A program made the position numbers and the translations under genes. Positions 14,084-20,709 of a DNA stretch of 64,000 bases are shown one piece after another. The stretch lies in NCBI GenBank assembly GCA_949752795.1, contig OX457057.1, positions 10,530,632 through 10,594,631 on the forward strand. The letters run 5' to 3'. The notes below the pieces were generated by a model that worked only from the letters and a program-made list of their open reading frames with translations, had not been told where the DNA came from and ran no database searches. This DNA is from Hyperoodon ampullatus (taxonomy: Eukaryota > Chordata > Mammalia > Artiodactyla > Ziphiidae). Numbering within the stretch: the stretch's first letter is position 1; each line of letters begins with the position of its first letter.

Positions 14084-14113
14084 AAAAATATCTAGGAATA
14101 GAGTCATAATCAG

Positions 14114-15597
14114 ACTTCCGGGTAAGATGGCGGAAGAGTAAGACGCGGAGATCACCTTCCTCCTCACGGATACACCAGAAATACAGCTACACGTGGAACA
14201 ACTCCTACAGAACACATACTGAACGCTGGCAGAAGACCCCAGACCTCCCAAAAGGCAAGAAACTCCCCACATACCTGGGTAGGGCAAAGCGGAGAGATTC
14301 CCGCACAGAGGATCGGTGCCGAGCGGCACTCACCAGCCCGAGAGGCTTGTCTGCTCGCCCGCCGGGGCGGGCGGCGCTGGAAGCTGAGGCTCGGGCTTCG
14401 GTCAGAGCGCAGGGAGAGGACTGGGGCTGGCGGCGAGAACTCAGCCTGAAGGGGGCTAATGTGCCACAGCTAGCCGGGAGGGAGTCCGGGAAAACTCTGG
14501 AGCTGCCGAAGAGGCAAGAGACTTGTTCTTCCCTCTTGGTTTCCTGCTGCGCGAGGAGAGGGGATTAAGAGCGCTGCTTAAAGGGGCTCCACAGACGGGC
14601 GCGAGTCGCGACTGAAAGCGCGGAGCCCAGTGACGGGCGTGGGACGCTGGGGCTGCTGCTGCCGCCGCCAAGAAGCCCGTGTGCGAGCGCAGGTCACTGT
14701 CCACACCGCCCTTCCGGGAGCCTGAGCAGCCCGCCACTGCCGGGGTCCCGGGATCCAGGGGCGGCTTCCCTGGGAGAACGCACGGCGCGCCTCGGGCTGG
14801 TGCAACGTCACGCCGACCTCTGCCGCTGCAGGCTCGCCCCGCACTCCGTGCCCCTCCCTCCCGCCCGGCCTGAGTGAGCCAGAGTTCCCGAAGAGGCTGC
14901 TCCTTTAACCCTTTCCTGTCTGAGCGAAGAACAGACGCCCTCCGGCGACCTACACGCAGAGGCGGGGCCAAATCCAAAGCTGAGACCCGGGAGCTGTGAG
15001 AACAAAGAAGAGAAAGGGAAACCTCTCCCAGCAGCCTCAGAAGCAGCGGATTAAAGCTCCACAATCAACTTGATGTACCCTGCATCTGTGGAATACATGA
15101 ATAGACAACAAATCATCCCAAATTGAGGAGCCAGGAGTCAGTACTGTGCCTCTGAGGTGGGAGAGCCAACTTCAGGACACTGGTCCACAAGAGACCTCCC
15201 AGCTCCACATAATATCAAACGGCGAAAATCTTCCAGAGATCTCCATCTCAACACCAGCACCCAGCTTCACTCAACGACCAGCAAGCTACAGTGCTGGACA
15301 CCCTATGCCAAACAACTAGCAAGACAGGAACACAACGCCACCCATTAGCAGAGAGGTGGCCTAAAATCATAAAAAGTCTGCAGACACCCCAAAACACACC
15401 ACCAGACGTGGACCTGCCCACCAGAAAGACAAGATCCAGCCTCATCCACCAGAACACAGGCACTAGTCCCCTCGACCAGGAAACCTACACAACCCACTAA
15501 ACCAACCTTAGCCACTGGGGACAGACACCAAAAACAACAGGAACTACGAACCTGCAGCCGGCAAAAAGGAGACCCCAAACACAGTAACATAAGCAAA
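14114..15597 (+). promoter_or_regulatory. L1 5' UTR with internal promoter region
   Basis: About 1.48 kb precedes ORF1. It opens with ACTTCCGGGTAAGATGGCGG, which contains an ETS-like core (ACTTCCGG, 14,114-14,121) and a YY1-like core (AAGATGGCGG, 14,124-14,133). In human L1 a YY1 site near +13 to +21 directs the start of transcription, so the same role is inferred here. About 14,330-14,980 is GC- and CpG-rich, unlike the surrounding AT-rich DNA. This fits an internal RNA polymerase II promoter that would be a methylation target. Confidence 0.8.
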
Positions 15598-16491
15598 ATG
15601 AGAAGACAGAAAAACACACAGCAGGAGAAGGAGCAAGATAAAAACCCACCAGACCTAACAAATGAAGAGGTAATAGGCAGTCTATCTGAAAAAGAATTCA
15701 GAATAATGATAGTAAAGATGATCCAAAATCTTGGAAATAGAATAGACAAAATGCAAGAAACAGTTAACAAGGACCTAGTAGAACTAAAGATGAATCAAGC
15801 ATCGATTAAAAACACAATAAATGAAATGAAAAATACTCTAGATGGGATCAATAGCAGAATAACTGAGGCAGAAGAACGGATAAGTGAGGTGGAAGATAAA
15901 ATAGTGGAAATAACTAATGCAGAGCAAAATAAAGAGAAAAGAATGAAAAGAACAGAGGACAATATCAGAGACCTCTGGGACAACATTAAACGCACCAACA
16001 TTCGAATTATAGGGGTTCCAGAAGAAGAAGAGAAAAAGAAAGGGACTGAGAAAATATTTGAAGAGATTATAGTTGAAAACTTCCCTAATATGGGAAAGGA
16101 AATAGTTAATCAAGTCCAAGAAGCACAGAGAGTCCCATACAGAATAAATCCAAGGAGAAATACGCCAAGACACATATTAATCAAACTGTCAAAAATTAAA
16201 CACAAAGAAATCATATTAAAAGCAGCAAGGCAAAAACAACAAATAACACACAAGGGAATCCCCATCAGGATAACAGCTGATCTCTCAGCAGAAACTCTAC
16301 AAGCCAGAAGGGAGTGGCAGGACATAATTAAAGTGATGAAGGAGAGAAACCTGCAACCAAGATTACTCTACCCAGCAAGGATCTCATTCAGATTTGATGG
16401 AGAAATTAAAACGTTTACAGACAAGCAAAAGCTGAGAGAGTTCAGCACCACCAAACCAGCTTTACAACAAATGCTAAAGGAACTTCTCTAG
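15598..16491 (+). CDS. L1 ORF1 protein, RNA-binding chaperone (297 aa)
   Basis: ORF1p coats L1 RNA as a trimer and acts as a nucleic-acid chaperone in the cytoplasmic L1 ribonucleoprotein. The N-terminus is short and charged. Residues about 30-128 are rich in heptad-like Ile/Leu/Met with Glu/Lys, fitting a coiled coil. The RRM begins near residue 129 (NIRIIGVPEE at 134-143). The C-terminal domain carries ADLSAETLQARREW (227-240) and YPARISF (258-264), hallmarks of the ORF1p C-terminal domain. At 297 residues it is shorter than human ORF1p (338), mainly in the N-terminal and coiled-coil part. I chose the first ATG (AAAATGA, A at -3); there is no in-frame break. It is the first cistron of a bicistronic RNA driven by the L1 5' UTR. 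Confidence 0.96.
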   Translation: MRRQKNTQQEKEQDKNPPDLTNEEVIGSLSEKEFRIMIVKMIQNLGNRIDKMQETVNKDLVELKMNQASIKNTINEMKNTLDGINSRITEAEERISEVEDKIVEITNAEQNKEKRMKRTEDNIRDLWDNIKRTNIRIIGVPEEEEKKKGTEKIFEEIIVENFPNMGKEIVNQVQEAQRVPYRINPRRNTPRHILIKLSKIKHKEIILKAARQKQQITHKGIPIRITADLSAETLQARREWQDIIKVMKERNLQPRLLYPARISFRFDGEIKTFTDKQKLREFSTTKPALQQMLKELL

Positions 16492-20368: not shown

Positions 20369-20700
20369 GAAAAAAAAAGGTCATGAAGAACATAGGGGTA
20401 AGACAGGAATAAAGACACAGACCTACTAGAGAATGGACTTGAGGATATGGGGAGGGGGAAGGGTAAGCTGTGACAAAGTGAAAGAGCGGCATGGACATAT
20501 ATACACTACCAAACGTAAGGTAGATAGCTAGTGGGAAGCAGCCGCATAGCACAGGGAGATCAGCTCGGTGCTTTGTGACCGCCTGGAGGGGTGGGATAGG
20601 GAGGGTGGGAGGGAGACGCAAAAGGGAGGGGATATGGGAACATATGTATACATATAACTGATTAAATTTGTGATAAAAAAAAAAAAAAAAAAAAAAAAAA
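20369..20700 (+). other. L1 3' UTR, G-rich tract and poly(A) tail
   Basis: The 3' UTR has a G-run block at about 20,587-20,613 (GGGG, GGG, GGG, GGG, GGG, GGG with short loops), a typical mammalian L1 G-quadruplex candidate. It ends ACTGATTAAATTTGTGAT and then about 26 A (20,675-20,700, the last five shared with the target duplication). The related L1 ending at 52.15 kb continues about 80 bp further. This copy therefore ends early, next to a new ATTAAA (20,661-20,666). Confidence 0.85.
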
Positions 20701-20709
20701 TATCTAGGA

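What the first reader, a model, noticed from the sequence alone, without database searches (positions are those of the whole stretch)
14084..20709. Full-length L1 with both ORFs open and all catalytic residues kept
ORF1 (297 codons) and ORF2 (1272 codons) have no breaks. The endonuclease residues, the RT D599 and FADD, and the C-terminal zinc-knuckle-like motif are all present. The target duplication is perfect, so the copy is young. Very few L1 copies in any genome meet these conditions. It may be a live or recently live source element.
Basis: partly seen in the sequence, partly recalled or inferred. Interest (0 to 1): 0.75.

Follow-up and report, generated by a model that had tools for sequence, protein, structure and literature searches.

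The report
Young, intact jumping gene, bottlenose whale
A complete and very young LINE-1 jumping gene lies in what looks like a northern bottlenose whale genome, beside other almost identical intact copies with traceable parent-offspring links, so this family was copying itself very recently.

Summary
Bases 14084-20709 are a full-length L1 bounded by a perfect 14-bp target duplication at a TTTT/AA-type site, with ORF1 (297 aa), ORF2 (1272 aa), the 16 checked catalytic and zinc-knuckle residues and a pure A tail. The host is most likely Hyperoodon ampullatus (cytochrome b of contig C755, 100% over 379 aa).

The rarity claim fails here. Of 39 other top 5'UTR matches I fetched 24, plus 2 copies found by a shared flank: 26 of 26 are full length, 99.71-99.97% identical, both ORFs open. 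The window copy has 1 private substitution in 6562 bp.

The family replicated recently: L032 has three daughters carrying 850-1120 bp of its 3' flank; two more families show 5' or serial 3' transduction.

Not shown: offspring, parent, polymorphism, expression or activity of this copy. Body variants contradict the flank pedigree in two families, so gene conversion, template switching or assembly error occurs.

Print is split on cetaceans: one paper calls L1 apparently extinct in lineages including cetaceans, another cites hyperactivity in minke whales. New member of a known kind; moderate interest.

The parts
14084..14097 (+). 5' copy of the 14-bp target site duplication AAAAATATCTAGGA
14098..14112 (+). 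15 extra nt between duplication and L1; likely a short 5' transduction or filler
   Evidence: 24 of 27 copies have 4 nt or fewer here; the window, L033 and L044 have 12-15; string joined to the L1 start found only here in the genome
14113..15597 (+). 5'UTR, 1485 nt, CpG-rich, with AAGATGGCGG at 14124-14133 (YY1-like by memory)
   Evidence: CpG obs/exp 0.64 against 0.23 for the window; sibling match starts
15598..16491 (+). ORF1, 297 aa (trimer region 91-128, RNA-binding domain 132-228, C-terminal domain 231-295)
   Evidence: trimer profile just under its cut-off
16492..16549 (+). 58-nt spacer
16550..20368 (+). ORF2, 1272 aa
16577..17257 (+). APE-like endonuclease region of ORF2 (residues 10-236)
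   Evidence: PF03372 10-229; solved human endonuclease chains matched to residue 236
18095..18865 (+). Reverse transcriptase region of ORF2 (residues 516-772, D599 and FADD 699-702)
   Evidence: PF00078
19934..19987 (+). CX3CX7HX4C motif (residues 1129-1146)
20369..20674 (+). 3'UTR, shorter at its end than in the older copy at 50664-52115
20675..20695 (+). Pure A tail (21 A before the duplication)
20696..20709 (+). 3' copy of the target site duplication

Best explanation
A very recent target-primed reverse-transcription insertion of a full-length L1 from a currently or very recently replicating L1 family in a beaked whale, most likely Hyperoodon ampullatus. Shown: complete anatomy, insertion hallmarks, near-identity to 26 other intact copies at other loci, and source-to-daughter links in the family through transduced flanks. 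Inferred: the 5'UTR drives a bicistronic RNA, ORF1p coats it, ORF2p nicks the T-rich strand and reverse transcribes it; and this copy could itself act as a source, since it differs from sibling L020 by one substitution (ORF2 residue 1224) and one 5'UTR base missing in L020.
For: Open ORFs and residues. Perfect duplication, TTTT/AA-type site, pure tail. 5'UTR search: 40 scored of 1673 first-look candidates, all 40 at 99-100%. 24 of the 39 others fetched, plus L032 and L033: 26 of 26 full length with both ORFs open, 99.71-99.97% identical. Target duplications of 10-18 nt seen for 27 of 27 copies, window included (24 by script; L018 and L019; L010). Private substitutions: 1 in the window copy, 70 in 27 copies. 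A 402-bp flank occurs at exactly four places at 100%: L032 is the source; L033, L018 and L019 are daughters with a second A tail and new duplications; L033 also has 11 nt matching L032's 5' flank (the last 4, GAGA, are common filler); 18847C is in exactly these four of 27. L044 carries 13 nt of L046's 5' flank and shares 16831C and 20428T only with it. Serial 3' transduction L017 to L010.
Against: No offspring of this copy seen: 20219T in 0 of 26 others. Parent not found (one match, itself). V631 in RT, shared only with L020 and L022, is A in 16 of 16 other ORF2p; in all ORF2 departs at 15 of 404 columns invariant in those 16 (none a checked catalytic residue), ORF1 at 1 of 57 columns conserved at 97% or more in 68 sequences. 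Coding variants in the first 21 copies show no clear purifying selection (singletons ORF1 7N:1S, ORF2 13N:13S; shared ORF2 7N:3S). Tail lacks the GC...AATAAA start seen in most siblings. Body variants contradict the flank pedigree in two families (L010 against L017; L032 against its daughters); gene conversion could also make copies look younger. No expression, methylation, polymorphism or activity data.
Confidence: 0.85

Rival explanations
1. A young but mere daughter: intact, yet silent (methylated, or disabled by its own changes) and never a source. This does not exclude the best explanation for the family.
For: No offspring with its private base among 26; V631 at a column that is A in 16 of 16 other ORF2p; no AATAAA-bearing tail start.
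Against: V631 is shared with L020 and L022, so a source that carried it was copied; 16 of 16 checked residues present.
Confidence: 0.45
2. The copy is older than it looks: gene conversion among L1 copies or assembly collapse has erased private changes.
For: L010 lacks L017's 16874G, 19288A and 20278A although it carries L017's flank; L032 carries 19354C, 19368C and 19483A that its daughters lack.
Against: Perfect duplication and pure tail; transduced non-L1 flanks are 100% identical over 402 bp at four places and over 850-1121 bp for L018, L032 and L033.
Confidence: 0.12
3. The near-identical copies come from segmental duplication, not retrotransposition.
For: High identity alone.
Against: Each of 27 copies has its own flanks and duplication; the window's 5' flank is single-copy.
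Confidence: 0.02
4. The ORFs are kept because the host uses them (domesticated gene).
For: Open ORFs.
Against: Complete mobile anatomy, many copies, no clear purifying selection.
Confidence: 0.01

Closest known systems
Human LINE-1 (solved ORF2p 8uw3, ORF1p 2ykp)
   Same: Two-ORF plan, EN-RT-CCHC ORF2p, ORF1p RNA-binding and C-terminal domains, A tail, target duplication, TTTT/AA-type site; 3' and 5' transduction in the family (known in human L1 by memory)
   Different: ORF1p of 297 aa, 5'UTR of 1485 nt and its own 3' end; the human 5'UTR was not compared here
Other cetacean L1 (ORF1p of Pseudorca, Phocoena, Globicephala, Monodon; ORF2 fragment of Balaenoptera musculus)
   Same: Best named matches: ORF1p 87-89% full length (Pseudorca, Phocoena, Globicephala), 92% over 71% (Monodon); ORF2p 89% over 55% (lists capped at 120)
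   Different: No listed protein is as close as the copies in the same genome; the older copy in the window (50664-52115, about 93%) has about 50 more nt of 3'UTR
Ruminant L1 (giraffe L1-1_Gir, cattle L1-BT)
   Same: Giraffe has a young L1 with more than 6400 full-length polymorphic insertions (PMC8620236, passages)
   Different: Named ruminant ORF1p (Moschus, Capra) 71-74%

Membership tests
LINE-1 (L1 clade non-LTR retrotransposon) | ORF1p with coiled-coil/trimer, RNA-binding and C-terminal domains | tested here: met
   PF02994 and PF17490 above cut-off; trimer PF17489 20.1 bits against a cut-off of 22.2, just under it; human ORF1p aligned over 84-297
LINE-1 (L1 clade non-LTR retrotransposon) | ORF2p with APE-like endonuclease and RT with FADD | tested here: met
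   PF03372, PF00078; human ORF2p aligned over 2-1267; residues
LINE-1 (L1 clade non-LTR retrotransposon) | C-terminal CX3CX7HX4C | tested here: met
   residues 1129-1146, same four residues in 16 of 16 aligned
LINE-1 (L1 clade non-LTR retrotransposon) | A tail, target duplication and TTTT/AA-type target | tested here: met
LINE-1 (L1 clade non-LTR retrotransposon) | Internal 5'UTR promoter | not testable with these tools
   only CpG richness and a YY1-like string at +12 (recalled motif)
Recently active L1 subfamily | Intact near-identical copies at many loci | tested here: met
   26 of 26 fetched others; sample chosen by similarity or flank
Recently active L1 subfamily | Identifiable source with daughters | tested here: met
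   L032 and three daughters
Recently active L1 subfamily | Insertion polymorphism among individuals | not testable with these tools
   one assembly only
Recently active L1 subfamily | Retrotransposition in an assay | not testable with these tools
   no bench data
Source element (this copy) | Offspring carrying its private base or flank | tested here: inconclusive
   private base in 0 of 26; 3'-flank search did not complete

The most novel reading that the evidence does not exclude
Beaked whales are in the middle of an L1 burst with many intact source loci active at about the same time. This burst supplies the enzymes for the SINE insertions that a 2026 preprint links to the unusually high structural-variant share of cetaceans including Hyperoodon, and L1 copies exchange tracts by gene conversion or template switching often enough to scramble pedigrees that transduced flanks reveal.
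Probability: 0.4. Interest if true: 0.6.

Novelty: new member of a known kind. Interest (0 to 1): 0.42.

Why it matters
Whether L1 is dead or alive in cetaceans is stated both ways in print (PMC5872511; PMC10566577). A chromosome-scale beaked-whale assembly with many near-identical intact copies and mapped source and daughter loci makes the question directly testable. It offers defined loci for population presence/absence work, and a candidate motor for the SINE activity that one preprint ties to the structural-variant share of cetaceans (PMC13320814).

Tried and rejected
Rejected: domestication (complete mobile anatomy, many copies); segmental duplication (own target duplication in 27 of 27 copies; single-copy 5' flank); 'rare intact survivor' (26 of 26 others intact).

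Led nowhere: relatives in viral contigs and genome contigs (no match; 7 and 29 pattern matches, none confirmed); a 3'-end search of the genome (nothing; the tool skips very common words, so this shows nothing); a template for the 15-nt insert (no further match of 10 nt or more in the window; in the genome, joined to the L1 start, only itself); papers on Hyperoodon retrotransposons (the 15 titles listed of 14,441 are general L1 papers, none holding the word Hyperoodon). Ivancevic et al. 2016 is not held, so I know it only through papers that cite it.

Not answered, so unknown: genome-wide count of exact 5' ends; offspring carrying the window's 3' flank (calls in the last membership row); a relaxed 5' pattern (not repeated).

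Weak lead kept out of the argument: L024's tail holds GACACATGC, part of L026's 3' duplication.

Full report
WHAT IS THERE. The window holds one full-length L1 on the + strand. AAAAATATCTAGGA at 14084-14097 is repeated without a mismatch at 20696-20709. The junction reads TATT/AAAAAT, i.e. [quoted passage not shown]). ORF1 (15598-16491) and ORF2 (16550-20368) are open, 58 nt apart. ORF2p aligns with solved human ORF2p over residues 2-1267, ORF1p with human ORF1p over 84-297. Pfam finds EN, RT and the ORF1 domains, the trimer domain just below its cut-off. The 16 residues that I checked are all present (the list is recalled from human L1 and shifted by one). Against 16 other ORF2p of at least 1250 aa, the window ORF2p departs at 15 of 404 invariant columns, none of them a checked residue; against 68 ORF1p, ORF1p departs at 1 of 57 columns conserved at 97% or more. 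The 5'UTR keeps CpG (obs/exp 0.64; window 0.23).

WHOSE GENOME. The window lies at C2:10530632-10594631 of an unnamed assembly of 2.83 Gb in 755 contigs. Contig C755 holds a complete cytochrome b whose 379 residues match Hyperoodon ampullatus at 100%; the next genera listed are at 94-96%. This rests on one mitochondrial protein, and nuclear copies exist (47 matches in all), so the species is most likely and not proven. The best named ORF1p relatives are cetacean too.

NOT RARE HERE. With 517 bases from the 5' end, the genome search scored 40 of 1673 first-look candidates; all 40 were at 99-100%, one of them the window itself. I fetched 24 of the 39 others (L010-L029, L043-L046). All 24 are full length with ORFs of 297 and 1272 aa. 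Two more (L032, L033), found by a shared flank, are intact as well. Identity to the window copy is 99.71-99.97% over 6562 bp. The sample was chosen for 5'UTR likeness or flank, so it shows that further intact young copies exist, not what share of all copies is intact. A genome-wide count did not complete.

AGE. In 27 aligned copies there are 70 singleton substitutions; the window copy has 1 (20219, C to T). In the first 21 copies the coding singletons were 20 non-synonymous and 14 synonymous with no stop: no clear purifying selection, as expected for changes after insertion, but the 7N:3S of shared ORF2 variants is no evidence of selection in sources either. One change in 6562 bp gives about 0.07-0.15 million years at 1.0-2.2 x 10^-9 per site per year (rates recalled), with an upper Poisson bound of 0.39-0.85 million years. 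Sampling more copies can only lower the private count; gene conversion could lower it falsely.

SUBLINEAGE. The window copy shares 18441T (ORF2 V631) with L020 and L022 only, and 17782A and 20514C with those two and six further copies. L020 differs by the private 20219 base and one missing 5'UTR base. V631 is A in 16 of 16 other ORF2p. The private change gives Y1224; the other 26 copies have C there, histidine in the five that I printed. In four of six other mammal-type ORF2p printed (donkey, dingo, marmoset, one unnamed) the residue is Y; in two the motif was not found.

COPYING SEEN IN THE FLANKS. L018 and L019 carry the same non-L1 sequence after their A tails. A 402-bp piece of it occurs at exactly four places at 100%; 36 weaker rows match about 100 bp at 77-85% and look like an old repeat. 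At L032 the duplication directly follows the first tail and the flank runs on without a second tail: the native source. L033 has 850 bp of it, L018 and L019 have 1120 bp, each followed by a second A tail and its own duplication. L033 also carries GGAATCTCGAGA between duplication and L1; the last 11 nt are L032's 5' flank, though GAGA also occurs as filler in L014 and L019. Variant 18847C is in exactly these four of 27. Second family: L044 carries 13 nt of L046's 5' flank (the last two, GA, are common filler) and shares 16831C and 20428T only with it. Third: L017 and L045 share a 3' transduction of about 110 bp with separate duplications; L010 carries that piece, a tail, 603 bp of L017's own flank (no mismatch, one 7-nt gap), another tail and its own duplication. 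I did not look for the source of the third family.

CONFLICTS. L010 lacks L017's 16874G, 19288A and 20278A. L032 carries 19354C, 19368C and 19483A, which none of its daughters has but other copies do. Gene conversion, template switching or local assembly error would explain this; I cannot choose without reads.

THE 15 NT. Bases 14098-14112 stand between duplication and L1. Of 27 copies, 24 have 4 nt or fewer there (some overlap the L1 start); the window, L033 and L044 have 12-15, and in L033 and L044 these match the parents' 5' flanks. The likeliest reading is a short 5' transduction. The string joined to the L1 start occurs only in the window copy, so the parent is absent from this assembly or has changed, or the nucleotides are filler.

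SOURCE OR NOT. The window's 5' flank has one match in the genome, itself, so no alternate empty site was seen. Its private base is in 0 of 26 others. Offspring by 3' flank could not be searched (calls in the last membership row). I put about 0.45 on its being a mere daughter.

LITERATURE. [quoted passage not shown] 2016 among others. [quoted passage not shown] That paper is not held. PMC6657726 (passages) reads a LINE-1/SINE peak near 5% divergence as recent activity in cetaceans. PMC6340175 (passages) reports 91,859 CHR2 SINE integration events in baleen whales and says LINE1 machinery moves CHR2. PMC13320814 (preprint passages) lists H. ampullatus among mammals with the highest structural-variant to SNV ratio (0.018) and ties cetacean changes mainly to SINE/tRNA elements. 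My nine answered paper searches (listings, plus passages of the papers named here and of PMC8620236, PMC5857283, PMC6036668 and PMC10531181, and the outline of PMC13174262) showed no description of this L1 family in Hyperoodon; that is not proof of absence. The link between this family and SINE activity is my inference.

VERDICT. A real, young, complete L1 of a recently replicating family; ordinary in mechanism; moderately interesting for its host and the readable pedigrees.

Noticed in passing
window about 28750-30000 (-): Processed pseudogene of mevalonate kinase (a 154-aa piece matches 2r3v, E 6e-68), apparently embedded in an older inverted L1 and broken by stops and frame changes: probably another product of L1 machinery.
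   Followed up: partly
window 50664-52115: 5'-inverted (twin-priming type) L1 copy, about 93% identical to the young element, with the longer 3' end that the young family has lost.
   Followed up: partly
L010 (C12) and L017 (C4): Serial 3' transduction whose L1 body variants contradict it: possible template switching or gene conversion between L1 copies.
   Followed up: partly
L032 (C12:21.44M), element positions 19354-19483: Three variants absent from its three daughters but present in other copies, and a 5'UTR 7 nt shorter: looks like a conversion tract after the daughters were made.
   Followed up: partly
L024 tail and L026 3' flank: L024's tail holds GACACATGC, part of L026's 3' duplication: possible very short 3' transduction.
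   Followed up: no
window 20675-20695; L015: The window copy and L015 have pure A tails right after GTGAT, lacking the AAAGCAAAAAATAAA tail start of most siblings.
   Followed up: no
window about 1.9k, 41.3k, 43.8k, 57.1k, 58.8k and 63.2k: Recurring translated motif of a tRNA-type SINE (CHR2-like by memory), consistent with a cetacean host.
   Followed up: no
P0004: An ORF1p 88% identical to the window's is filed under a Delftia sp. metagenome bin on a 2021-bp contig: probably cetacean DNA in a bacterial bin.
   Followed up: no
window 14456-15064 (-): A 202-aa antisense frame in the G+C-rich 5'UTR; probably chance, though an antisense 5'UTR frame exists in primate L1 (recalled).
   Followed up: no
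G000, 47 cytochrome b matches: Several long nuclear mitochondrial copies (C9, C6, C82, C13 and others) with only TGA 'stops', i.e. apparently recent.
   Followed up: no
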